DNA of 24,189 nucleotides from a virus, in IMG/VR virus record IMGVR_UViG_3300027906_000151, positions 1 to 24,189 of that record. One strand, given 5' to 3'. The number at the start of each line of letters is the position of its first letter. The stretch's first letter is position 1. Position numbers and translations under genes: made by a program. Of this stretch, positions 11,395 through 23,627 are shown in pieces. The notes beneath the pieces are model-generated. The model had not been told where the DNA came from. It was given only the letters and a program-made list of their open reading frames with translations, and made no database searches.

Positions 11395-11739
11395 ATGGCG
11401 ACCTTCCCAAGCATTGAATCTGATTTCGGGATTGCTAAAAGCAGCAACCCACAGATCACTACAACGAGATTTCAAGACGGTTATGTTCAGAGAATTAAAT
11501 GGGGCATGAATGTTGACCCTAAAACTTGGTCGCCTAGATGGAACAACATCACGGAAGCACAATCAGACACAATAGAAGTATTTTTACAAGCCAGAATTGA
11601 CGATGGTGATTCTTTTGCTTGGACTCCGCCTAATGAGTCAGCGGCGGGGAGATATGTTTGTGAATCTTGGAATAAGACGATGAACTATGCAGGATTAGCA
11701 AATATCTCAGCAACCTTTTTAGAAGTATTTGAACCCTAA
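11395..11739 (+). CDS. Minor tail protein, lambda gpM-like
   Basis: Probable M-type tail tip protein, needed at the distal end where the tape measure meets the tip. At 114 residues it matches lambda gpM (109). Shared pattern: TTTRFQDGYVQRIKWGMNVDPK (lambda VRKVRFGDGYSQRAPAGLNAN), then a mid-protein helix, SFAWTPP (lambda SFLWTPP), a cysteine in GRYVCESW (lambda VTCAKW), and a final strand ISATFLEVFEP. The GDGY/QDGY turn and the F-WTPP motif are clear, so the call is firm despite modest overall identity. Two bases separate it from the tape measure stop, and its own stop overlaps the next start as TAATG. Confidence 0.9.
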   Translation: MATFPSIESDFGIAKSSNPQITTTRFQDGYVQRIKWGMNVDPKTWSPRWNNITEAQSDTIEVFLQARIDDGDSFAWTPPNESAAGRYVCESWNKTMNYAGLANISATFLEVFEP

Positions 11740-12371
11740 TGGCAATACCTGTATCTGAGTTACAGAAAAGAAACCCAAGCAACATTATTGAGCTTTTTCA
11801 GCTTCAATTGTCAACGGCAATTCATGGCACGAATACAACTTATTATTTCCATAATGGGGTTTCTGAAGATGGTTACAGGAATATTATTTTTGACAATCAA
11901 GAGTACACAAGGATGCCGATTGAAAGTGATGGATATGAATACAATGGGCGGCAACTACCAAGACCAACTCTTCGCGTTTCAAATATTGCAGGAACAATCA
12001 CAACCTTACTTTTGACATTGCCTCAGGGATTAGAGGGCGCGAAGGTGACGAGAATTAGAACTCTTGAAAGATATCTCGACGCTGCCAATTTCAGCGGGGG
12101 AGACATTTTATTAGAAAATAGTTCGAGTAATTTAATCGTGCAAGAAGATGATTCGCTTATCAATCAAGAGGAAGGGACTAACCCACATGGAACCCCAGAT
12201 GCATCGGCAATATTCCCAAGCGAGGTTTATTTTATTTCTAGGAAAGTCACAGAGAACAGAGCGCTTGTTGAATTTGAATTAGCTGCAAGCTTCGACCTGG
12301 ACGGCGTGCGAATACCTAAAAGGCAAGTCTTACCGGCTGATTTCCCTGGCATTGGTTCGTTCTATTCCTAA
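11739..12371 (+). CDS. Minor tail protein, lambda gpL-like, without the cysteine-rich C-terminal domain
   Basis: Tail tip protein of the gpL family. The N-terminal part fits: [20 protein letters not shown], then [19 protein letters not shown] with [10 protein letters not shown] (lambda has GFELNGKGTSTRPTLTVSN), and [12 protein letters not shown]. At 210 residues it is slightly shorter than lambda gpL (232). Lambda gpL ends in a cysteine-rich part reported to hold an iron-sulfur cluster; this protein has no cysteine anywhere and stops at [13 protein letters not shown]. It also carries an extra segment at about 123-146 ([20 protein letters not shown]) that is repetitive and acidic. The gene is TAATG-linked to both neighbours M and K. 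Function in the tip is by homology. Confidence 0.87.
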
Positions 12372-13075
12372 TGTGGAAAGATGATGCTTTAAAACATGCA
12401 AAGGCAGAAGACCCAAGGGAGTCTTGCGGTTTGTTAGTTGTAGTAAAAGGGAAGAAGAAATATTGGCCTTGTGAAAATCTAGCTGTTAACCCGGAAGATC
12501 AATTTATTCTCAACCCTATCAATTGGGCGGATGCCGAAGACAAAGGCGGGGAAATTATTGCTGTTATCCATAGTCACCCAACAACAAGCCCTCAACCTTC
12601 GGAAGCGGATAAAGTCGCATGTGAAAAATCTGGACTTAAATGGTATATCGTTCAACCGAATCTCGAACAATGGGTTGAATATAAACCTTGCGGATTTAAA
12701 GCAAGCCTAATTGGGAGGTCGTGGGTATGGGGTGTTAATGATTGCTGGAGTTTATGCAGGGACTATTACCAGGAAGAATTAGGGATTGAGTTAGTGGATT
12801 GGGATAGGCCAAATGACCCTGATGATTTTATTAAAAGACCAATGTTTGATACTTGTTTTGAAGCTACAGGTTTCAGGGAATTAAAGCCGGAAGAGGATTT
12901 ACAAAAAGGTGATTTACTATTACTAAGTATTGGCAGTACAGGTTTAAATCATATTGGTGTTTATTTAGGGGAACAAATACTTTTGCATCATTTACAAAAT
13001 AGGCTTTCAAGTCGTGACTTATTAGACGAATGGCTACTAAAATGCATAGGTAGGAGGATTCGACATGTTGCGTAA
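12371..13075 (+). CDS. Tail tip protein, lambda gpK-like (JAMM plus NlpC/P60)
   Basis: A two-domain protein of the gpK family, involved in tail tip assembly and probably in local peptidoglycan cleavage during entry. The N-terminal JAMM/Mov34 domain keeps all expected residues: ESCG with Glu17, HSHP with His67 and His69, and PSEAD with Ser77 and Asp80, ligands for zinc. The C-terminal NlpC/P60 domain has a likely catalytic Cys125 in [13 protein letters not shown] and His194 in NHIGVYLG, with a polar third residue near HH206-207. Both active sites therefore look intact. Length is 234 against about 199-246 for relatives. It overlaps the next gene by 11 bases, with that gene's AGGAGG inside its end. 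Confidence 0.94.
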
Positions 13076-13652
13076 AGTTCGATTGTATGGAGACTTAGCA
13101 AAGTTTGTTGGCGAGCGTGTGCTAGAAGCCGACGTTGCTAACGCTGCTCAAGCATTAAGGTTTCTTGTCGCTAATTGGCCTGAGTTAAAGAATTACATGG
13201 CAGATAGAAGGTATAAAGTTGTTGCTGATAATTGGGACATAGAAAAAGAAGAGTTGTTTTATCCAACAGGTCAAAGTGATATAAAAATCATTCCTGTTAT
13301 TGGTGGAGCTGGTGGAAACTGGGGAAAGGTTATTTTAGGAGTTGCTTTAATTGGTATTGGCTTTGCAGTTGGTGGTGGTGTCTTTGGTGCTTCCTTGGCA
13401 AAAAATTTAGGTGCTATTAGTTTTGTTAAAGGCGTAGGTGCGGCGGTGGCGTTAAGTGGGGTAGCTGGGTTGCTAACTCCTGTGCCTCCTATACCAGAAC
13501 TTGCACAAGACCCGCGCAATAATTCGTTTAGCTTTAGCGGGATTCAGAACACTTCAAGGGCTGGTGTTTGCGTTCCTGTCATTTTCGGGGAGGTCATAAC
13601 CGGCTCTGTTGTCATATCGGCGGGTGTTGATACTCATCAGGTGGAAGCATGA
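13065..13652 (+). CDS. Tail assembly protein, lambda gpI-like
   Basis: A tail-tip assembly factor of the gpI family, probably working with K and J. The 195 residues start with a ubiquitin-like fold ([17 protein letters not shown], then [19 protein letters not shown]), pass through [13 protein letters not shown] near 72-84, a glycine-rich hydrophobic stretch (about 88-140, with [17 protein letters not shown] and [16 protein letters not shown]), and end in [20 protein letters not shown] and IFGEV, the typical closing motif. The hydrophobic part could insert in membrane at entry, which is inference. Lambda gpI is 223 residues. A strong AGGAGG (13052-13057) precedes the ATG inside the end of the K gene. 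Its stop overlaps the J start as ATGA. Confidence 0.92.
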
Positions 13653-16600
13653 GCATCGTCATTGGAGCTGGTAGCGCAACAGGCAAGGGCGGCGGTGGCG
13701 GTGGCGGAACTCCGACTGAAGCGAAAGATAATTTAGATTCAAAGCAATTTGCAAAAGTACTTGATCTCTTAGCCGAAGGTGAAATAGAGGGTTTAGTGGA
13801 TGGGGCTAAATCTATTTATTTAAATAACACACCTTTGCAGGATTTTCATGGTGCTTACAATTTCAAAGATGTTACTTACGAGGTAAGAACAGGAACATCA
13901 AATCAAACAAGCATTCCAATTACTGTTAATACAGAAACTACAAAAACAACAGGACTAAGCACAATTGTCCAAGCAACTCCGGGCGTTGTTCAGATTACAG
14001 ACAGTGAAGTAGATGCAGTAAAAGTTATTGTCTCTGTTCCACAGTTACAGGAGATTTCAGACAAGGGAGATATTTTTGGAACAGAGGTTGAAATTCAAAT
14101 ACAAGTTCAATATAGCGGCGGTTCTTATGCAACAAAAATTTCAGGAGCATCAGGCAAAATTACAGGGCGAACGGGTGATTTATATGCCCGTGAATATTTA
14201 GTCAATTTAGACGGCGCTTTCCCTGTCAATATAAAACTCATAAGAGTTACAGCCGATAGCGGAAGTTCAAAGCTAACAAATGCGATTCAGTGGAACAATT
14301 ATGTAGAGATTAAATATGAGAATCGAACTTATCCGAATAGTGCTTTAGTTGGTATACGTGTAGACGCGGAGCAATTCACTAGCATTCCAACTAGGAAATA
14401 CCGTATAAAGGGGCAGAAAGTCCAAATTCCGCATAACGCAACTGTCAGAGCTGATGGAAGCCTTTCTTATTCAGGAACATTTAACGGGACATTAGGGGCA
14501 GCGCAATATACAAATGATCCGGCTTGGTGTTTATATTCGCTTTTGACAAGTTCACGTTTTGGGCTTGGTGATCATTTAGAAGCATCAGAACTTGATAAGT
14601 TTTCTTTTTATTCGGCTAGTCAATATTGCGGCACTCAAGTTGATGATGGAACAGGAACAGGTTCAACAGAACCACGTTTTGCAATATCGGCAAATTTACA
14701 AAATCAACAAGAAGCTTATAGCGTCGTCAATCAAATGTGCTCTGTATTTAGAGCTATGCCTTATTGGGCAGCGGGATCTTTAGAAATTACGCAAGATAGC
14801 CCAGCCGATGCGAGCTATTTATTTACTCTTGCTAATGTTTTACCCCCTGGGTTCGTTTATTCGAATACAAGCCAAAGGACAAGGCCAACCGTTGTTGTTG
14901 TTAAATATTTAGATCTGGAATTGATGGATGTAAATTACGAAGAAGTTATTGATAGTGCAAACCTGGCAAGATATGGCCGAGTAGTTAAAAACATTGATGC
15001 TTTTGGGACAACTTCAAGGGGCCAGGCTAATCGTCTTGGTAAATGGCTTTTATATGAAGAAAACTTAGAAAAGGAACTGGTCAATTTTACAACTTCGGTT
15101 TCAGCCGGTGTAATCGTTAGACCTGGGCAAGTTATAGAAATAGCTGATGAGATGAAAAGCGGAACCCGTCGCGGTGGTTTAACCAAAAGCGGTGCAACAA
15201 CAACCGCCGTTCCTGTTGATGATATTACGGGCATTAGTTATACAGTGAGCGCCTCTTTATCTGTTGTCTTGCCTGATGGGTCAGTTGAGAAGAAAACAGT
15301 CAGCGGTATTTCTTCCAATACGATTTCTGTTGTGGGTAATGCTTTTAGTGCAGCGCCTAATGAAAATAGTATGTGGGTATATGAAACAACTGATATCGAG
15401 TCTTCCCAATGGCGTGTTTTAACTGTTGACGAACAAGACAGAGCAACTTATTCAATAACAGCTAATGAACATCACTCTGGTAAATATGCACATATAGAAT
15501 CAAATATTGCTTTAGTTAAAAGAGACATAACTAATTTGGATGTTCCCCCTCCAAGCCCATCAGGTCTAATAGCTACAGAAACAATTTATGAAAATACAGG
15601 AATTGCCAGAGTAAAAATTATACTTAGTTGGACGAGCGACAATGATAATGCTTATGTTCGTTGGAGATATGAAAACGGTAACTGGGTAGGCAGGGCAATA
15701 GAAGGATCAAAGACCTATGAAATATTAGACACTGTTGATGGAAATTATAGGATTGAAGTTTATAACGTTAGCGCGTCTGGTTTAAGGTCAACTCTGCCAG
15801 CACAGTTAAGTCCTTTTGTAGCAGAAGGAAAAACAGCTTTACCCCAGCAAGTCACGGGCGTAAGTCTTTTACCTATAGATGAAGCGAGCGCAATTCTTAG
15901 CTGGAACAGAGCTACGGAGCTTGATGTTTTACTGGGTGGCAAAACGCTAATAAGATTTGCACAGGTATCAACCGGGGCTACTTGGCAGAACTCGCAAGAA
16001 ATCGGGATTGTTGCCACAGGATCACAGACACAGAAGCAAGTCCCTTTAATTGACACAGGTTCTTATCTTTTGAAATTTGAAGATGATGGAGGTCGTCGAT
16101 CAGGCACGCCGGGTAGTAGTGATTCAGATTGGAATGATTCAAGGGTGACGATTGATTACCCAGCTCCATCAGAAAGGTTATTACTTCAAACAATTGATGA
16201 ACATACAGCCAACTTCGCAGGGACAGATTCTAATACTGAATTTGATGCAAGCCTGGACGCTTTAAAATTAACCGTAACTGATAACGCTACGGCGGCATCG
16301 GGTGAATATACCTTTGCCAATGCTGTTAACTTGACTCAATCTTATTCTGTTAATGTTCGCAGGAATTTAAAAGCATCAGGATTTTTCTTAAATAGTTTAT
16401 GGGATGCAAGAACAGACTTAATCGACTCCTGGGGGCTAATTGATTCAATAGGTTCTGACCAGGCCGATAAAGTTAATTGCAACGTATATCTAAGAACAAG
16501 CCTTGACAATTCAACATGGACAACATGGAGAGAATTTACGAATGTTTTAGTTAAAGCAAGGCATATACAATTCAAGGCGAAACTAACCTGTTCCGATACG

Positions 16601-16894
16601 AACCAAAATATTCAGGTTACAGAACTAGGAGCCGTATTAGAATTACAAGGAAGAACGGAGTCTATTTCGACTCCAGTCACAACAGGATCATCAGCTTACA
16701 CAGTGACATTTATCAAAGCCTTTAAAAACACTCCTTCTGTCGTCATTACGCCGACATCGCAGCAAACGGGTGATTTCTATGAATTGGCAAGCATCACAAG
16801 AACAGGTTTTCAAGTAACCTTTAAAAATGGTAGTGCTGCCGTTGCTCGTCCATTTGTATGGGCTGCGTCAGGTTTCGGTAAGGAGGTTACTTAA
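13649..16894 (+). CDS. Central tail tip / host specificity protein, lambda gpJ-like
   Basis: Likely the central tip protein that closes the tail and contacts the host. At 1081 residues it is near lambda gpJ (1132). The N-terminus has a glycine run (KGGGGGGG, 13-20) followed by LDLLAEGEIEGLVDGAKSIY, diagnostic of the family. The PTRKYRIKGQKVQIPHNATV segment, AQYTNDPAWCLYSLLTSSRFG and FRAMPYWAAGSLEITQDSP agree as well. From about 630 there are two fibronectin-III-like repeats (about 632-724 and 730-815). The C-terminus (about 1020-1078, PSVVITPTSQQTGDFYELAS to FVWAASGFG) is a compact beta domain of the kind often ending phage tip proteins and may bind a receptor. It ends at the AGGAGG that serves the next gene. 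Confidence 0.93.
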   Translation: MSIVIGAGSATGKGGGGGGGTPTEAKDNLDSKQFAKVLDLLAEGEIEGLVDGAKSIYLNNTPLQDFHGAYNFKDVTYEVRTGTSNQTSIPITVNTETTKTTGLSTIVQATPGVVQITDSEVDAVKVIVSVPQLQEISDKGDIFGTEVEIQIQVQYSGGSYATKISGASGKITGRTGDLYAREYLVNLDGAFPVNIKLIRVTADSGSSKLTNAIQWNNYVEIKYENRTYPNSALVGIRVDAEQFTSIPTRKYRIKGQKVQIPHNATVRADGSLSYSGTFNGTLGAAQYTNDPAWCLYSLLTSSRFGLGDHLEASELDKFSFYSASQYCGTQVDDGTGTGSTEPRFAISANLQNQQEAYSVVNQMCSVFRAMPYWAAGSLEITQDSPADASYLFTLANVLPPGFVYSNTSQRTRPTVVVVKYLDLELMDVNYEEVIDSANLARYGRVVKNIDAFGTTSRGQANRLGKWLLYEENLEKELVNFTTSVSAGVIVRPGQVIEIADEMKSGTRRGGLTKSGATTTAVPVDDITGISYTVSASLSVVLPDGSVEKKTVSGISSNTISVVGNAFSAAPNENSMWVYETTDIESSQWRVLTVDEQDRATYSITANEHHSGKYAHIESNIALVKRDITNLDVPPPSPSGLIATETIYENTGIARVKIILSWTSDNDNAYVRWRYENGNWVGRAIEGSKTYEILDTVDGNYRIEVYNVSASGLRSTLPAQLSPFVAEGKTALPQQVTGVSLLPIDEASAILSWNRATELDVLLGGKTLIRFAQVSTGATWQNSQEIGIVATGSQTQKQVPLIDTGSYLLKFEDDGGRRSGTPGSSDSDWNDSRVTIDYPAPSERLLLQTIDEHTANFAGTDSNTEFDASLDALKLTVTDNATAASGEYTFANAVNLTQSYSVNVRRNLKASGFFLNSLWDARTDLIDSWGLIDSIGSDQADKVNCNVYLRTSLDNSTWTTWREFTNVLVKARHIQFKAKLTCSDTNQNIQVTELGAVLELQGRTESISTPVTTGSSAYTVTFIKAFKNTPSVVITPTSQQTGDFYELASITRTGFQVTFKNGSAAVARPFVWAASGFGKEVT

Positions 16895-17854
16895 ATGAGC
16901 AATACTCACGATTACTCGCTCGGGAATGCAAACGGCCTGAATTTTAGAAATGACATTAATAGCGTTCTAGCAGATATTCAATCGACCAATTCAGGTTCCT
17001 CAAGTCCTTCAACTACTGTTGCTGGTAAATTATGGATTGATACGACTAACAATTTAATTAAGCTCAGAAATAATAGTAATAATGCTTGGATTACAATCGG
17101 CTCAAGCAATACAGCAAATCTAGGTTTAGCTTCTACTGCCTCCCCTTCTTTTAGCGGAACTCTCACATCAGCCGGGGATATTGTTTGCACAGGTACAGGA
17201 TCATTACAATTACCAGCCGGAACAACAGCGCAGAGGCCAACGGGTGCAACTGGCGACCTGCGATTTAATAGCACAATAAGTAAGGTAGAAACTTATACAG
17301 GCTCTACATGGGAAAGCGTCGGTGGGGTTCCCGCTGGGTCTGTTGTATCTTTTGCTCATACAACTCCTCCTAGTGGTTGGCTTGAATGTAATGGGGAGGC
17401 AATTAGCCGTTCAAATTTTGCAACACTCTTTGCGGCGATTGCTACAACCTGGGGGGCGGGTGATGGATCAAGTACTTTCGCCCTCCCAGATTTAAGGGGT
17501 GAGTTTGTTCGCGGTTGGGATCATTCGAAAGGTACAGATAGCGGAAGAAATATGAACGCAACTGTTCAAACCGATCAAAATAAATCACATAATCACTCTG
17601 CTAGCATTTCTGACCCAGGGCATACACATCAAGGTAGAGGCTTGACTTTGAACAATATCTTTGGTGGTGTTGCTGTAACGCTTGGTTCTGGTCAGAGTTA
17701 CACAGTTGGTTATAGAAACGATAATGTGAACTTTAGTAATGCAAATACATCGAACACTACGGGCATTTCCCTATCTGGTGGAGTTACTGATAATCAAGGC
17801 GGTACTGAAGTTAGAGTTAGAAATATTGCCATGATGTACATAATCAAGTATTAG
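16895..17854 (+). CDS. Tail fibre protein with tail-collar domain and HxH motifs
   Basis: A fibre or tip-attached protein. Residues 1-70 contain a small attachment-like module (SLGNANGLNFRNDINSVLAD, then GKLWIDTTNNLIKLRN). Residues about 110-145 hold the QRPTGATGDLRFNS module, shared with the next gene. A phage tail-collar domain follows (146-205: GSVVSFAHTTPPSGWLECNG to FALPDLRGEFVRGW). Beyond it are two HxH motifs, HNH (232-234) and HTH (243-245), like those that bind iron in T4 fibre tips and gp12. It closes with RVRNIAMMYIIKY, a common fibre end. AGGAGG (16881-16886) precedes the ATG, the best ribosome site in the fibre cassette. Receptor binding is inferred. Confidence 0.88.
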   Translation: MSNTHDYSLGNANGLNFRNDINSVLADIQSTNSGSSSPSTTVAGKLWIDTTNNLIKLRNNSNNAWITIGSSNTANLGLASTASPSFSGTLTSAGDIVCTGTGSLQLPAGTTAQRPTGATGDLRFNSTISKVETYTGSTWESVGGVPAGSVVSFAHTTPPSGWLECNGEAISRSNFATLFAAIATTWGAGDGSSTFALPDLRGEFVRGWDHSKGTDSGRNMNATVQTDQNKSHNHSASISDPGHTHQGRGLTLNNIFGGVAVTLGSGQSYTVGYRNDNVNFSNANTSNTTGISLSGGVTDNQGGTEVRVRNIAMMYIIKY

Positions 17855-17856
17855 TT

Positions 17857-19173
17857 ATGGCAAACAGGAAGATCAGTGAATTTACAGCGCTAACGGCTCC
17901 GGCGGCGTCTGATGTCCTTGCGATTATTGATCAAAGTGAATCAGGGGCAGATAAGAATAAAAAGATTACTTTCGAGGATCTTCTTACTAATGCACCGGCT
18001 GGGACTCAAAGTGCTCCGAGCTTTAGTTTCATTGGGGATAATGACACAGGTCTGGCTCAAAGTGGAGACAACGGCTTATTACTGACAACAGGTGGAACAG
18101 CACGTTTAACAATAAATTCGGCTGGCCTTGTCACCATTCCGGGCGACTTAACTGTTAGCGGTACTACTACCACTATTGACACAACAACTCTTACGATAAA
18201 AGACAAAAATATCGAAGTTGCAAAGGGGCTAGGTAATGATGCCGCTGTTAATGGGGCAGGTATAACGATTGATTCTACTGACGGGGATAAAACATTCAAT
18301 TGGGTTGATTCCACTGATGCCTGGACAAGTTCAGAACATATAGATCTTGCATCAGGAAAAGTTTTAAAAGTTGCTGGCACGCAAGTTCTTTCTGCTACTC
18401 AATACACAGGAAACGCTGCAACCTCAACAAGCGCTGCAACTTTAACAACAGCTCGCGCAATTAATGGCGTTAACTTTGACGGGTCAGCGGCAATTACAGT
18501 TACAGCAGCGGCGGGCACTCTTACAGGTACAACTTTAAAAAGTACCGTTGTTACTTCAAGCTTGACCTCAGTTGGAACTCTTACTTCTTTAGCTTCAGGA
18601 GCAATAACAACTACAGATAATCTTTCTATTGATAACGCAAAAGAGCTGCGTTTATATGAGGCGGATTCAAACGGCGCGGCCTACGTTGGGATTAAATCTC
18701 CAGACGATAAGGGATCAGAAGCTAGTTATACAGTTTCATTACCAGCGGCGGCCCCAACTGCAAATCAAATATTAAAGGCTAATGCTTCTACTCCTACGAC
18801 TTTGGAATGGGCAACTGATACAGCCACAGACTCAAGTAAAATGCCCTTGGCAGGAGGATCTTTTAGCGGTTCTGTAATTCATAACTATACCGATGCAATT
18901 AAGGTTCCTGTAGGTACAACAGGCCAACGGCCCACAGGTGCGGCGGGTCACTTTAGATATAACTCAACCACTGGAAAGTTTGAAGGGTACACGGATGAAT
19001 GGGGAGAAATTGCAGGTGGTGGTGGAGGTGACGCAGGTCTATTACAGATGGCGCAAACTGTTGCAACATCAATTACTTTAACCACTAACTACAATGCCTT
19101 TAGTGTTCAGCCAACAATTGCAAGTGGCGTAACGGTTACTGTGCCAGCGGGTGCGGTATGGGCTGTCATTTAA
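17857..19173 (+). CDS. Tail fibre-like structural protein (KISEFTAL module)
   Basis: A 438-residue repetitive beta-rich protein, probably fibre. It starts with KISEFTALTAPAASDVLAII plus KKITFEDLL, an N-terminal module seen on many marine phage fibres and likely used for attachment. Then come FIGDNDTGLAQSGDNGLLLT/TGGTARLTINSAGL, a threonine-rich repeat region (SGTTTTIDTTTLTIKDKNIE), a VSLPAAAPTANQILKANAS module, DSSKMPLAGGSFSG, and QRPTGAAGHFRYNSTTGKFE. The C-terminus (LLQMAQTVATSITLTTNYNA) is a short beta cap. It begins two bases after the previous stop and lacks an obvious Shine-Dalgarno. Modules are shared with four neighbouring genes, which argues for shuffling. Fibre role is inferred from position and repeats. 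Confidence 0.78.
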   Translation: MANRKISEFTALTAPAASDVLAIIDQSESGADKNKKITFEDLLTNAPAGTQSAPSFSFIGDNDTGLAQSGDNGLLLTTGGTARLTINSAGLVTIPGDLTVSGTTTTIDTTTLTIKDKNIEVAKGLGNDAAVNGAGITIDSTDGDKTFNWVDSTDAWTSSEHIDLASGKVLKVAGTQVLSATQYTGNAATSTSAATLTTARAINGVNFDGSAAITVTAAAGTLTGTTLKSTVVTSSLTSVGTLTSLASGAITTTDNLSIDNAKELRLYEADSNGAAYVGIKSPDDKGSEASYTVSLPAAAPTANQILKANASTPTTLEWATDTATDSSKMPLAGGSFSGSVIHNYTDAIKVPVGTTGQRPTGAAGHFRYNSTTGKFEGYTDEWGEIAGGGGGDAGLLQMAQTVATSITLTTNYNAFSVQPTIASGVTVTVPAGAVWAVI

Positions 19174-19218
19174 TTAAAGACACTATGCCATCGCATGAAT
19201 ATCAATTAAACTGAAATC
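19174..19218 (+). other. Short gap between fibre genes with a small inverted repeat
   Basis: This 45-base spacer holds ATGC-CATC-GCAT (a 4-bp stem). It begins TAATTAAAGAC counted from the preceding stop, loosely like the repeat found after the next two fibre genes, but too diverged to call a copy. No ribosome site or promoter is clear before the ATG at 19219. Confidence 0.3.
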
Positions 19219-20415
19219 ATGGCTACTAAAATTTCTGGGACAAATACAGCGGCAAATCCGGGTATAACTGGAGACGACACAGACACAGGTTTATTTTATG
19301 GGACTAATGAGATCGGGTTTAGTACTGGTGGAACCTCAAGACTGACACTTGATAGTGATGCATTAACAGTTAGTGGTGAATTAGTAATCAATCATGATGA
19401 TTGGAATACAATACGAGCATTAAATACAAAAGATGATATCTATGGTGCTTATCTTGTTTTAGCAAAGAAATCATCATCTCCCGCTGATAACGATCAAGTA
19501 GGAGTAGTCAATTTCAGAGGTGATAATGATGCAGGAGAAGAACTTACATATGGCACAATAATAGGTAAAAGTATAGATGTTACTGATGGTACAGAAGATG
19601 GTCAACTTGAGTTCTATACTGTTGGAAATGGTACTTATGCAGAAAGACTCCGCATCACAAGTGATGGAAAAGTTGGTCTTAATGAAGATACTCCTCTTGC
19701 TGATTTGCATATAATTACTGTTGGAAGCAGTGGGCAGAATGGATCTCTACAATTAGGAGGAAGTGGCGCAACACTAGGATTAAAACTTGAATATGATCAA
19801 AGCGGTAATACTGTTTCAAAAATTACTGCAAACCCAACATATACAAATTCTTCTTCCCAATTAAAAATTTGTGTTGATGGAGATAATAACGCTGACCAAT
19901 TAGTATTAACAGGAGACGGGAATGTAAAAATAGGTGATGGCAACCTAGTAATAGGAACCGCTGGTCACGGTATTGACTTTAGTGCTCAGAGTACTCACGC
20001 TGCTACAGGTGCGACTACAACTGCAGAGCTTTTGGATCATTATGAGGTTGGCACATGGACACCAACTGTTGATGGTTCAGGACATAGTTATAGTCAACAA
20101 CACGGTGACTATACAAGAATTGGCAACGTAGTAACTGGTAGTTTCTACATGACTGTATCTACTTACGGATCGGCTGGAGGTCGAGCAGGTAGTCTTCGTG
20201 GGCTGCCCTATACTTCTGCTTCAATTACGGCAGGTGGAAACCCTGTATGGTGGCAGAATCTAAATACTAATTATGTTTTCCTTAATTTTTACACGTACAA
20301 CTCTGCATACTTTGATTTCTATGGAATGACCTCTGCAAGTGATGACGCTACTTGGGTCAATCCCTGGCAAACAAGCACAAGTATTCAAGGTGTTTTTCAA
20401 TATAATGTAGCTTAA
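19219..20415 (+). CDS. Tail fibre-like protein with GHGIDFSA module
   Basis: A 398-residue fibre candidate. The N-terminus (PGITGDDTDTGLFYGTNEI, then STGGTSRLTLDSDALTVSGE) repeats the FIGDNDTGL...TGGTARL module of the upstream gene. The middle has AERLRITSDGKVGLNEDTPL, the trimerising 'LRI-x-S-x-G-x-VGI' style found in beta-helical fibres. The C-terminal third has GHGIDFSAQSTHAATGA and LLDHYEVGTWTPTVDGS, with GDYTRIGNVVTGSFYM, a receptor-binding-type module seen again in the gene at 20779. It ends with aromatic-rich sequence (WWQNLNTNYVFLNFYTYNS). No Shine-Dalgarno is visible. A 33-base repeat begins at its stop codon. By eye its codons are more A/T-ending than those of the head genes. Confidence 0.78.
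   Translation: MATKISGTNTAANPGITGDDTDTGLFYGTNEIGFSTGGTSRLTLDSDALTVSGELVINHDDWNTIRALNTKDDIYGAYLVLAKKSSSPADNDQVGVVNFRGDNDAGEELTYGTIIGKSIDVTDGTEDGQLEFYTVGNGTYAERLRITSDGKVGLNEDTPLADLHIITVGSSGQNGSLQLGGSGATLGLKLEYDQSGNTVSKITANPTYTNSSSQLKICVDGDNNADQLVLTGDGNVKIGDGNLVIGTAGHGIDFSAQSTHAATGATTTAELLDHYEVGTWTPTVDGSGHSYSQQHGDYTRIGNVVTGSFYMTVSTYGSAGGRAGSLRGLPYTSASITAGGNPVWWQNLNTNYVFLNFYTYNSAYFDFYGMTSASDDATWVNPWQTSTSIQGVFQYNVA
19936..19988 (+). repeat. Fibre module repeat, copy 1 (GHGIDFSA coding)
   Basis: GATGGCAACCTA at 19936-19947 and a 28-base block at 19961-19988 recur in the gene at 20779, the block with one mismatch (C/T). Conservation at DNA level between two otherwise different fibre genes points to recent recombination or duplication. 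Confidence 0.8.
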
Positions 20416-20445
20416 TTAGACCGTAGCTAAGTCTCTAAACTAAGT
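20413..20445 (+). repeat. Post-fibre 33-base repeat, copy 1
   Basis: It runs from the TAA stop of the fibre gene to TAAGT. The second copy (22063-22095) is identical except at 20430 (A here, C there). It contains AGAC/GTCT as a 4-bp stem around a 9-base loop. Beyond it the two intergenic sequences diverge. Another small stem, AGTTC-AATC-GAACT, lies at 20463-20476. Confidence 0.9.
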
Positions 20446-20485
20446 TTCATTTAAACCTGTTTAGTTCAATCGAACTCTCCTAAAA

Positions 20486-20779
20486 ATGGCTACCTTAACC
20501 GAAGAAAAAATGAACGACAAATTGGAGGTAGTCAATAGATTCAACCTTCAGATTAGGGAGGCGACCATTATTAAGCGTGACGGGGTAGAGATTTCAAGAA
20601 CTTTTCATAGGAAAGTATTAACACCTGGAACACTAGACGATTCTGACAATCTTATAGAGACAGACTTATCAGGCGAGGACGCTGATGTTAAAGCCGTTGC
20701 AGAAGCAGCTTGGGGAGTTGGAACAGTAAAGGCAGACTACAAAGCTTTTCTTATAGCTAACAAAACAGCTACACCATAA
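20486..20779 (+). CDS. Small protein between fibre genes, unknown role
   Basis: A 97-residue protein not recognised as a named family. It begins MATLTEEKMNDKLEVVNRFN, has a strand-like middle (IREATIIKRDGVEISRTFHR, KVLTPGTLDDSDNL), an acidic section (ETDLSGEDADVKAVAEAAW), and a helical end (KADYKAFLIANKTATP). No signal peptide or membrane segment is evident. The mix of ERDG-type turns and an acidic helix is reminiscent of small phage proteins located next to fibre genes; a chaperone for the fibres is conceivable but unsupported. It has no clear Shine-Dalgarno, and its stop overlaps the next start as TAATG, so it is likely to be co-translated with the fibre gene that follows. Confidence 0.75.
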   Translation: MATLTEEKMNDKLEVVNRFNLQIREATIIKRDGVEISRTFHRKVLTPGTLDDSDNLIETDLSGEDADVKAVAEAAWGVGTVKADYKAFLIANKTATP

Positions 20780-22065
20780 TGTCAAAGCTCAAATTACAAG
20801 CAACAGACGGTTCGGCTGGAACTGTATCTCTAAAAGCACCCGCATCAACAACGGGTAACGCTGAATTTGAGCTAACCCTCCCTGGGAATGCGGGGAGTAA
20901 TGGGCAGCTTTTATCCACGAATGGATCGGGTGTCTTAAGTTGGTCAGATGATAACTCTGGTGTTTCGCTTAGTGGCTCGACGAATAATACTATTGCAACT
21001 GTAAGCGGAGCTAATGCGCTCGTCGGTGAGGCAAATCTTACCTATGATGGAACAGATTTAAAGCTAACTACAGACGCTAATGGCGAAGGAATAGTAATGT
21101 ATTCCAGTGGTTCTACTTTCTCTAAATTATCTGGTGACGCTAATAGAGCAAGTGAGAATCAAAGTTGTTTATATATTCAAGCAAACTGGAACGGAACAGC
21201 GGTTGGTGCGATAGATTTCGTTGCTGGTCCAGATACAACAAATAAAGATGATGGGCACATAAAATTCCAAACGGCAACATCTGGAAGCACTATTACAGAA
21301 AGGATGCGTATCGATTCTGAGGGGAGAATTGATTTAGGTGGTCAAACTAACAGTTCAACTGGTATAGGAGTTTTAAGAACAAAACACCATACAACCTCAA
21401 ATAATCCAGTAAATGTCATTGGATGTGTTTCAGGTAGTGGCTATAACAACGTTCAAATTGGTGGTAATGATACAAGTTTTGCTGGCACTGCATCAACTGC
21501 CGTTAGATTTTATACAGCAGCAAACGCTACAACAGCAAATGGGACATATAGAGGACAATGGGATGGTAGCGGAAACCTTTCTATAGATGATGGCAACCTA
21601 ATAGTTGCCTCTGGTCATGGTATTGACTTTAGTGCTCATGCTAATGACGGAGGTATGACAAGTGAACTGTTTGACGATTATGAAGAAGGCGGATTCACTC
21701 CAGGCAGTACAAATGCAGACTTTTCAACTAAAACTGGATGGTATACGAAAGTTGGTAGATTAGTTCATGTTCAACTAAAAGTAGAAGGCGGTAGTAATTT
21801 TAATGGTAGTAATGCTGTCTATATTACTGGATTACCTTATACTAATGCAGCGAGCAAAGATGTTGTTGGAAGTGCTTTGTACTATAAAATCAGCTTTGCA
21901 TCTGGTTATACTGATCTTGTAGCACCTTATATCGCAGGTGGTGGTACTAGCATATATTTCATGAGAATGAATAGTGGTAGCGGTAGTGGTAACTATCTTC
22001 TTGCAGATGCCTTTCACACTAATGCATCCATTGATGTTAATATCACATACTTTGCAGCTACATAA
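20779..22065 (+). CDS. Tail fibre-like protein with VSLKAPA and GHGIDFSA modules
   Basis: A 428-residue fibre candidate. It starts with KLQATDGSAGTVSLKAPAST and GQLLSTNGSGVLSWSDD, a module also at the start of the gene at 22114. The centre has ITERMRIDSEGRIDLGG, the LRI-S-G type beta-helix repeat. Near residue 278 comes GHGIDFSAHANDGGMTSELF with DDYEEGGFTPGSTN, then WYTKVGRLVHVQLKVEG, parallel to the gene at 19219. The last part differs completely from that gene (GGTSIYFMRMNSGSGSGNYL), as expected for a receptor-binding tip. The TAATG overlap with the small gene before it suggests coupling. A 33-base repeat starts at its stop codon. Confidence 0.8.
   Translation: MSKLKLQATDGSAGTVSLKAPASTTGNAEFELTLPGNAGSNGQLLSTNGSGVLSWSDDNSGVSLSGSTNNTIATVSGANALVGEANLTYDGTDLKLTTDANGEGIVMYSSGSTFSKLSGDANRASENQSCLYIQANWNGTAVGAIDFVAGPDTTNKDDGHIKFQTATSGSTITERMRIDSEGRIDLGGQTNSSTGIGVLRTKHHTTSNNPVNVIGCVSGSGYNNVQIGGNDTSFAGTASTAVRFYTAANATTANGTYRGQWDGSGNLSIDDGNLIVASGHGIDFSAHANDGGMTSELFDDYEEGGFTPGSTNADFSTKTGWYTKVGRLVHVQLKVEGGSNFNGSNAVYITGLPYTNAASKDVVGSALYYKISFASGYTDLVAPYIAGGGTSIYFMRMNSGSGSGNYLLADAFHTNASIDVNITYFAAT
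21589..21638 (+). repeat. Fibre module repeat, copy 2 (GHGIDFSA coding)
   Basis: It matches 19936-19988 with a 3-base length difference: GATGGCAACCTA at 21589-21600 and a 28-base block at 21611-21638 carrying one mismatch. The protein frame is the same in both copies. Confidence 0.8.
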
Positions 22066-22095
22066 TTAGACCGTAGCTACGTCTCTAAACTAAGT
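22063..22095 (+). repeat. Post-fibre 33-base repeat, copy 2
   Basis: It starts at the TAA of the fibre gene and is identical to 20413-20445 except at 22080. That change makes GTAGCTAC a perfect palindrome inside the loop. The next gene starts 18 bases later. It could be a recombination junction for swapping fibre genes, an RNA processing site or a weak regulatory site; nothing decides between these. Confidence 0.9.
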
Positions 22096-22113: not shown

Positions 22114-23367
22114 ATGGCAGATCTAAAACTAATTGCTGATTCTGGTGGTGGAACGGTATCCCTAAAAGCACCTGCTACTACAACAAGTAATGCAGCGGTA
22201 ACGTTAAAGCTCCCTGTGGCTGATGGGAGTGCGAACCAACTATTAAAAACTGATGGCTCTGGTCAGTTGGGATGGGCAACAGATGGCACGACTGACAGTA
22301 CTAAAATGCCTCTCGCAGGTGGAACGTTTAGTGGGGATACTCTATATAACGATTCTGTAAAAGCTAAATTTGGGACATCATCAGATCTTCAACTACATCA
22401 TACAAGTAATGTTAATTATGTAGATAATGCTGGCACTACTAATTTAGAAATTAGATCTAATGGTGGTTCTGAATATATGGCTAGTTTTAAAGCTGATTCC
22501 TCAGTAGATCTCTATTATAACAGCTCAAAGAAATTTGAGACAGAGCCAAAAGGTATAATAGTTAATGGTGGTGGATCTGGTGAAGGTTTAGTTCAAATTA
22601 TAGGAGCTAATAGTTCTTCTTCCACTATTGAATTTGGTGATACAGATGACGATGATGTTGCTCAGATTTGGTATGACCATTACGGCAAAAATCTATATTT
22701 TAGGACATCGGAAGATGCTGGTATGAGTTGGCATGTTAATGGATCTGAACGTTTAAGACTTAATTCAGCTGGATGGTTAAAAGCTTGGGGAACATCTTCA
22801 ACTATTATTGGTTCTGCTAATAACTACCATGAGCTTAATGCTGACACAGCTCATAATCTTACTTTAGGTTTAAGACATAAATCCTCTCAAGGGTATGGTA
22901 TACAAACTCAATTAGCTCATAGTGGTTCTGGACATTACCATTACTTAGCCTATGATTACGTTAATGATGTTATACGCTGTGTCATTCGTGGAGATGGTGA
23001 CTTAGAAAATTCCAATAATAGTTATGGACAGTATTCAGATATTAAACTTAAAGAAAATGTTGTTGATGCTAACTCTCAATGGGATGATATTAAAGCTCTA
23101 AGAGTTAGGAATTTCAATTTCAAAGCATCTACTGGACAAAGTACACATAAACAACTCGGATTAGTAGCTCAAGAAACTGAATTAGTTTGTCCTAATCTTG
23201 TAAAGGAAATGCCAGATTTAGAATATGATAATGAAAATAAAGATTTAGGAACAACAACTAAAGCTATTAAATATTCTGTGCTTTATATGAAAGCTATTAA
23301 AGCTCTTCAAGAAGCAATGGCAAAGATAGAAACCTTAGAAACAAAAGTAGCTGCTTTAGGTGGCTAG
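22114..23367 (+). CDS. Tail fibre or spike with C-terminal S74 autocleaving chaperone
   Basis: A 417-residue fibre candidate. The first part repeats the upstream fibre's start (LKLIADSGGGTVSLKAPATT, NQLLKTDGSGQLGW) and carries DSTKMPLAGGTFSGD, shared with the gene at 17857. The last about 110 residues are a Peptidase S74 intramolecular chaperone: YSDIKLKENV at 307-316 with likely catalytic Ser308 and Lys313, then ALRVRNFNFKAS, KQLGLVAQETELVCPNLV and a coiled-coil end (MKAIKALQEAMAKIETLETK). In this family the chaperone drives trimerisation and is then cut off just before the serine. Codons look more A/T-ending than elsewhere. No Shine-Dalgarno is obvious. Hairpin-forming sequence follows the stop. 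Confidence 0.9.
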   Translation: MADLKLIADSGGGTVSLKAPATTTSNAAVTLKLPVADGSANQLLKTDGSGQLGWATDGTTDSTKMPLAGGTFSGDTLYNDSVKAKFGTSSDLQLHHTSNVNYVDNAGTTNLEIRSNGGSEYMASFKADSSVDLYYNSSKKFETEPKGIIVNGGGSGEGLVQIIGANSSSSTIEFGDTDDDDVAQIWYDHYGKNLYFRTSEDAGMSWHVNGSERLRLNSAGWLKAWGTSSTIIGSANNYHELNADTAHNLTLGLRHKSSQGYGIQTQLAHSGSGHYHYLAYDYVNDVIRCVIRGDGDLENSNNSYGQYSDIKLKENVVDANSQWDDIKALRVRNFNFKASTGQSTHKQLGLVAQETELVCPNLVKEMPDLEYDNENKDLGTTTKAIKYSVLYMKAIKALQEAMAKIETLETKVAALGG

Positions 23368-23385
23368 GTCATAGCCTAGGGCTAT
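23362..23385 (+). other. Competing hairpins after the last fibre gene
   Basis: ATAGCC (23371-23376) pairs with GGCTAT (23380-23385) around TAG. Alternatives overlap: GGCTA (23362-23366) with TAGCC (23372-23376), and CTAGG (23364-23368) with CCTAG (23375-23379). No T-run follows, so it is not an intrinsic terminator. It may mark the end of the fibre cassette. Confidence 0.45.
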
Positions 23386-23411
23386 ACTTACGCTATGTCT
23401 AAATAGTCCTA

Positions 23412-23627
23412 ATGTCTTCTGTAATTGATGCCAAAATTGCTACATGCGAAGCGACTCTTGTCGAAAAGAAAGAGTATCTAGGTCAGGTGCAAAATGCTGA
23501 AAGGGTAACGACCCAAGATATTATTGGGCTTCAAGCTGCTATTCAAGTCCTAAAAGATACACAGGCAGAAATGCTTTCTAGCGCTGGCCAAGCTGCTGAA
23601 ACTGCTGAATGTGAACTTGCCCAATAA
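23412..23627 (+). CDS. Small helical protein, unknown role
   Basis: A 71-residue protein with no recognised family. It is almost entirely helical in appearance: DAKIATCEATLVEKKEYLGQ, then ERVTTQDIIGLQAAIQVLKD, then an alanine/glutamate-rich end. The spacing of hydrophobic residues suits a two-helix coiled coil, similar in style to small phage structural or tail-associated proteins. No signal peptide or membrane segment is present. It follows the last fibre gene by 44 bases that contain hairpins, and no Shine-Dalgarno is evident. Its last 50 bases overlap a possible gene on the other strand. Confidence 0.65.
   Translation: MSSVIDAKIATCEATLVEKKEYLGQVQNAERVTTQDIIGLQAAIQVLKDTQAEMLSSAGQAAETAECELAQ

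What the first reader, a model, noticed from the sequence alone, without database searches (positions are those of the whole stretch)
20413..22095. Near-identical 33-base repeat starting at two fibre stop codons
Both 20413-20445 and 22063-22095 begin at the TAA of a fibre gene and match at 32 of 33 positions although the coding ends before them differ. They flank a unit containing the small gene at 20486 and the fibre gene at 20779. This could be a recombination boundary allowing exchange, loss or duplication of a small-gene plus fibre unit.
Basis: seen in the sequence. Interest (0 to 1): 0.6.

Follow-up and report, generated by a model that had tools for sequence, protein, structure and literature searches.

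The report
Shared boundary for swapping fibre tips
The repeat is a small conserved stretch sitting right behind tail-fibre genes in many unrelated ocean viruses of bacteria, and comparing those viruses shows that it marks the edge at which they exchange the host-binding tips of their fibres.

Summary
The 33-base repeat is real: 32/33 identical, no chance match in 100 shuffles, no third copy in the window. It is not a private duplication. The same core (stop-TAGACC-loop-GTCT-nn-AAACTAAG) follows fibre genes in about 200 IMG/VR instances and in cultured Prochlorococcus podoviruses (P-GSP1, P-RSP2, the P-SCSP group) and a myovirus (P-TIM68); it usually precedes a ~95-aa gene (PHROG 6228). Its 3' extension holds a covariation-supported RNA hairpin over the small gene's ribosome site. 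It marks a recombination edge. Contig L030 is 95-97% identical to the window up to 19986, carries an unrelated fibre tip (~430 bases), and is ~95% identical again from the repeat onwards. Conversely L031 carries the window's tip (89%) with different sequence beyond the repeat. So the usual exchanged unit is the C-terminal receptor-binding head (predicted fold like the Det7 tailspike head, Z 14.5), bounded 5' by a conserved GHGIDF...YEEGTWTP coding block and 3' by this element. Closest known: T4 gp37/38 tip shuffling, PeSL cassettes, marine metaviromic islands. New variant of a known kind.

The parts
20413..20445 (+). copy 1 of the element core, starting at the stop of fibre 1; hairpin-1 arms AGAC 20418-20421 / GTCT 20431-20434
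   Evidence: conserved in ~200 loci
22063..22095 (+). copy 2 of the element core, starting at the stop of fibre 2; hairpin-1 arms 22068-22071 / 22081-22084; no hairpin 2 and no small gene after it
   Evidence: same arrangement in L006
20446..20485 (+). 3' extension of copy 1: linker TTTAAACCTGTTT and hairpin 2 (AGTTC 20463-20467, loop AATC, GAACT 20472-20476) in front of the small gene's ATG
   Evidence: covariation in relatives
20486..20779 (+). small gene, 97 aa, PHROG 6228 (E 1.9e-18); candidate fibre chaperone (inferred)
   Evidence: AF2 pLDDT 93.5; no confident PDB match
19219..20415 (+). fibre 1 (398 aa)
19949..20052 (+). 5' edge of the exchanged cassette in fibre 1: GHGIDF (19963-19980) to YEVG (20041-20052)
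   Evidence: identity with L030 ends at 19986
19987..20412 (+). exchangeable C-terminal head (tip) of fibre 1
   Evidence: replaced in L030, shared with L031; Det7 tailspike head-like fold, Z 14.5
20779..22065 (+). fibre 2 (428 aa); tip about 21637-22062, edge motif GHGIDF 21613-21630
22114..23367 (+). fibre 3 (417 aa) with C-terminal Peptidase_S74 intramolecular chaperone
   Evidence: Pfam PF13884 E 1.8e-9

Best explanation
The repeat is the 5' part of a conserved, structured intercistronic element between a tail-fibre gene and the small gene after it (or the next fibre gene). In about half of the instances the element's own TAG is the fibre stop codon. Together with a conserved coding block (GHGIDF...LLDDYEEGTWTP) it frames a hypervariable cassette of about 130-145 codons, the receptor-binding head. 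Because both frames are conserved between otherwise unrelated marine phages, homologous recombination during co-infection can replace the head while keeping stem, stop codon, small gene and its translation signal intact. A second copy after fibre 2 gives the same socket to a second fibre and allows gain or loss of a whole fibre unit by crossing over between copies. Shown: the repeat, its recurrence, head replacement at these edges, hairpin 2 by covariation, hairpin 1 by few compensatory changes. Inferred: that the element guides recombination rather than only surviving it; that the hairpins tune termination or translation of the fibre/small-gene pair; that the small gene is a fibre chaperone; that hosts are picocyanobacteria.
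For: Window v L030: 97.2% over 11613-18422 and 95.4% over 18574-19986, then unrelated tip, then 94.4% from 20409. Window tip in L031 (88.7%, 513 nt) with different downstream DNA; L009/L035 tips 89.9% with different downstream; alignments switch inside or just after the core. 19 pairs with body kept and no detectable tip match (a few include the second copy of the same contig), among them cultured P-GSP1 v L096; about a dozen further pairs with tip shared and body different. Of 73 pairs with 90-95% identical downstream DNA only 2 have alignable tips. DNA information: 1.48 bits at the YEEG block, about 0.2 in the tip, 1.16 in the element (the element value is partly by construction). Element TAG is the stop in 109/205; small gene follows in 185/205. 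In 104 small-gene loci found by protein, 74 have hairpin 1. Hairpin covariation: 31 two-sided cells v 9.8 in shuffles; slid structures 0-7.
Against: No experiment or read-level junction. Conservation of the element for RNA reasons alone would give the same mosaic pattern. Single-sequence folding energies are ordinary (|z|<1 for the window copies). Hairpin 1 hardly varies, so covariation there rests on few sequences. Many loci were fetched with the element pattern, so its conservation is partly by construction. The small gene also occurs behind fibres without hairpin 1, so the element is not required for the arrangement.
Confidence: 0.68

Rival explanations
1. The element is only an expression signal (structured fibre 3' end plus ribosome-site hairpin of the small gene). 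Tips are exchanged by random recombination and selection keeps only products broken at domain edges, so the repeat plays no causal part in exchange.
For: Covarying hairpin 2; hairpin 1 retained with other sequence (AGCC/GGCT in L091 and L081, TGAC/GTCA in L115); several small genes without the hairpins carry a plain AGGAG-type ribosome site instead; the small gene follows fibres without hairpin 1 too.
Against: Similarity in tip-sharing pairs continues through the 27-33 base core and stops right after it, and the core follows fibres even when no small gene follows.
Confidence: 0.22
2. Direct repeats acting as a switch in this phage: crossing over between 20413-20445 and 22063-22095 deletes or duplicates the small gene plus fibre 2.
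For: Equal 1650-base spacing of both edge motifs; L006 has fibre-element-fibre3 without the unit; 13 other loci carry two copies, most of them flanking one fibre gene.
Against: No near-identical genome with and without the unit; L006's tail genes are only distantly related (about 40-60% in protein over most matched stretches); relatives vary the fibre region in many other ways.
Confidence: 0.12
3. A site for a site-specific recombinase (invertase or integrase type).
For: Short partly palindromic core with conserved flanks.
Against: All copies examined lie in the fibre's orientation; loop and stem sequence vary; the 5' edge of the cassette is a coding motif, not the core; no recombinase was recognised among the window ORFs inspected (no dedicated search).
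Confidence: 0.03
4. Assembly artefact joining two fibre genes at a repeat.
For: The stretch 20805-22062 is covered by this contig only among those compared.
Against: A 33-base repeat is shorter than usual reads; L030 and L006 support the two junction types independently.
Confidence: 0.02

Closest known systems
T4-type gp37/gp38 adhesin shuffling (Tetart 1998; Trojet 2011, as cited in PMC3797505)
   Same: C-terminal receptor-binding part of a fibre is replaced often; edges lie at conserved motifs (own knowledge of Tetart 1998)
   Different: There both edges are coding motifs in gp37/gp38 (own knowledge); here the 3' edge is a non-coding structured element shared by a lambda-type phage, podoviruses and a myovirus
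PeSL 'mobile regulatory cassettes' of T4-type phages (Arbiol 2010, PMC2839356; paper not held, known from memory and from citations)
   Same: Small repeated intergenic cassette with a stem-loop that marks module exchange
   Different: PeSLs carry an early promoter (from memory); no promoter was shown here and the cassette is tied to fibre genes
Metaviromic islands of marine phages (Mizuno 2014, PMC3909814)
   Same: Hypervariable fibre C-termini in otherwise near-identical marine phages
   Different: No boundary element was found described there; this gives both edges of such an island at base resolution
Shared fibre + chaperone modules of Alteromonas phages A5/V22 (PMC10579305) and Pam3 gp24/gp25 (PMC9608196)
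   Same: Fibre gene followed by a small chaperone gene; in A5/V22 shared across morphotypes
   Different: The small protein here has no detected sequence or fold match to known chaperones; whole-module sharing there, head-only exchange here

Membership tests
PeSL-type mobile regulatory cassette | Short intergenic repeat with a stem-loop, in several copies or contexts | tested here: met
PeSL-type mobile regulatory cassette | Contains an early promoter | not tested
   No promoter scan or transcript data; conserved AAACTAAG is not a clear -10 box
PeSL-type mobile regulatory cassette | Located at edges of exchanged modules | tested here: met
T4-like adhesin tip swapping | Tip replaced between related phages with flanks kept | tested here: met
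   Window/L030 and other pairs
T4-like adhesin tip swapping | Tip determines host specificity | not testable with these tools
   Only fold similarity to receptor-binding heads
Structured RNA element | Base pairs kept by two-sided changes | tested here: met
   Hairpin 2: 5 of 6 pairs change on both sides; hairpin 1: 2 of 5 pairs, one sequence each
Structured RNA element | Match to a described Rfam family | tested here: not met
   0 matches at E<=1 in four loci
Tail-fibre chaperone (small gene) | Sequence or fold of a known fibre chaperone | tested here: inconclusive
   No Pfam hit; beta-sheet plus two helices, best Z 5.5
Metaviromic island | Region variable among near-identical phages | tested here: met

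The most novel reading that the evidence does not exclude
A portable structured 'socket' shared by marine lambda-type phages, T7-like podoviruses and T4-like myoviruses gives them access to one common pool of receptor-binding heads: its 5' hairpin ends the fibre reading frame and anchors recombination, and its 3' hairpin sets translation of a shared fibre-assembly protein, so any incoming head is expressed in the right ratio.
Probability: 0.33. Interest if true: 0.75.

Novelty: new variant of a known kind. Interest (0 to 1): 0.6.

Why it matters
It gives base-resolution edges for the fibre-tip islands known in marine phages and a DNA tag that finds them in sequence data. With it, the rate, partners and limits of receptor-binding head exchange across phage families, at least some infecting Prochlorococcus, become measurable, and an unlisted, covariation-supported phage RNA element can be tested directly.

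Tried and rejected
Outer helix pairing the linker with the start codon: complementarity no better than shuffled partners (4.97 v 5.17 mean bp). Loop-linker pseudoknot: no consistent pairing seen by eye. Rfam: no match. Thermodynamic z-scores: ordinary. GGA hairpin as CsrA-type site: dropped as a claim, since the window's own version has AATC in the loop. Host origin of the element: rejected, of 5 genome matches 4 are chance-like and one is a phage-like contig. Small-protein fold search against PDB: nothing confident. A near-identical genome lacking the unit: none found among the window's close tail-module relatives. Literature searches found no description of the element.

Full report
Observation. 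The two copies are where the finding says, 32/33 identical, each starting at a fibre TAA. They are the only copies in the window and not a chance match. The coding DNA before them is unrelated (52% v 48% for shuffles). The earlier segments 19949-19999 and 21599-21649 (80% alike) have the same 1650-base spacing; they encode GHGIDFSA at the start of the fibre tips.

Recurrence. An exact scan for 15 core bases gave 33 IMG/VR contigs; about two thirds show the extended element after a fibre stop or before the small gene, the rest are chance. Over all fetched loci I kept 205 instances. In 109 the element's TAG is itself the fibre stop codon. In 185 the next gene is a relative of the window's 97-aa protein (PHROG 6228); elsewhere mostly a fibre gene follows, as after copy 2 of the window. 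In L026 the upstream ORF is not a fibre. Cultured carriers of the full element are P-GSP1, P-RSP2 and P-SCSP1/2 (Autographiviridae) and P-TIM68 (Kyanoviridae); S-CAM4, S-B05, RB11-B and S-SRM01 carry only the 3' half with the small gene. The window itself has a lambda-type terminase and tail gene order (gene order by inspection). In 104 distinct small-gene loci found by protein similarity, not by the element, 74 carry the hairpin-1 stem. This is the less biased figure. Of five bacterial-genome matches four lack the flanks and the fifth is a phage-like contig with the small gene.

Exchange. L030 (same contig as L280) is 97.2% identical to the window over 11613-18422 and 95.4% over 18574-19986. 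It then has an unrelated tip and returns to 94.4% from 20409 through the small gene into fibre 2. So a tip was replaced between the GHGIDF block and the element in two otherwise near-identical phages. The reverse also occurs: L031 ends its fibre with the window's tip (88.7% over 513 bases) but continues with another linker and a small gene only 73% alike; L009 and L035 behave the same way. In these pairs the match runs through the core and stops just behind AAACTAAG. In all, 19 pairs keep the fibre body but have no detectable tip match, and about a dozen further pairs share the tip but not the body; not all of these are independent. Among 73 pairs with 90-95% identical downstream DNA only 2 have alignable tips. 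Anchored profiles show 1.48 bits at YEEG, about 0.2 bits inside the tip, and 1.16 bits in the element, the last partly by construction. The YE.G.[WFYV].P motif was found in 138 of 193 upstream ORFs, a median of 131 residues before the stop.

What is exchanged. AlphaFold2 of the window tip with 51 relatives (pLDDT 82.8) resembles the C-terminal head of Det7 tailspike gp208 (Z 14.5, 2.3 A over 121 residues), then more weakly the heads of TP901-1 and PSA receptor-binding proteins. A receptor-binding role is inferred from fold and position. Some contigs carry the tip as a stand-alone ~150-aa gene that also ends at the element; one such tip (L096) is 81% identical over 371 bases to the tip of a full fibre in L219.

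RNA anatomy. Hairpin 1 is (T)AGAC-loop-GTCT, nearly invariant; TGAC/GTCA occurs in L115 and AGCC/GGCT at the same place in L091 and L081. Hairpin 2 lies before the small gene, usually with a GGA loop; its stem appears as TTAATC/GATTAA, TATATC/GATATA, ACGTTC/GAACGT, AGCTC/GAGCT, AATTC/GAATT, AAGTC/GACTT and, in the window, AGTTC/GAACT. In 116 distinct sequences pairs 47-60, 48-59 and 49-58 are always paired with three or four pair types each. On an 18-sequence alignment the named structure has 31 two-sided cells against 9.8 in shuffles and 0 to 7 in slid versions. Where both hairpins are missing, a plain AGGAG-type site precedes several of the small genes, which suggests hairpin 2 is a structured ribosome-binding site. 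Single-sequence folding energies are unremarkable, a pairing of the linker with the start codon was not supported, and no Rfam family matches.

L006 has fibre 1-like, element, fibre 3-like, with no small gene or fibre 2 between; 13 other loci have two copies, most of them flanking a fibre gene. This fits gain and loss of fibre units through the element. L006 is distant, and the window's tail-module relatives vary this region in many ways, so no particular event is shown.

Comparison. Tip exchange is known in T4-type phages (cited in PMC3797505), fibre C-termini are hypervariable in marine phages (PMC3909814), and fibre-chaperone modules move between morphotypes (PMC10579305). PeSL cassettes are the nearest kind of non-coding boundary (from memory and citations; the paper is not held). 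What appears new is a structured, fibre-linked element shared by three kinds of tailed phage that gives one edge of the exchanged head at base resolution. The literature search covers open-access papers only.

Noticed in passing
window 23366-23414: A strong hairpin follows the fibre 3 stop (-13.1 kcal/mol, z -2.2), unrelated in sequence to the element.
   Followed up: partly
window 18423-18573: A second variable stretch inside the fibre at 17857: L030 is unalignable here although both sides are 95-97% identical; its protein is 473 aa against 438.
   Followed up: no
L096 2557, L113 1869, L129 9242, L142 4670, L203 3708, L227 6698: Stand-alone ~150-aa fibre-head genes (MSIFIGGTGSANELDDYEEGTWTP...) ending at the element, upstream of a full fibre gene.
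   Followed up: partly
L276: A contig binned as a Neomarinimicrobiota MAG carries the element and the start of the phage small gene; probably phage DNA in the bin.
   Followed up: partly
window 20486-20779: PHROG 6228 protein family with a confidently predicted beta-sheet plus two-helix fold without a good PDB match.
   Followed up: partly
L026 3401: Element plus small gene behind a non-fibre ORF: the element can stay with the small gene when the fibre is absent.
   Followed up: no
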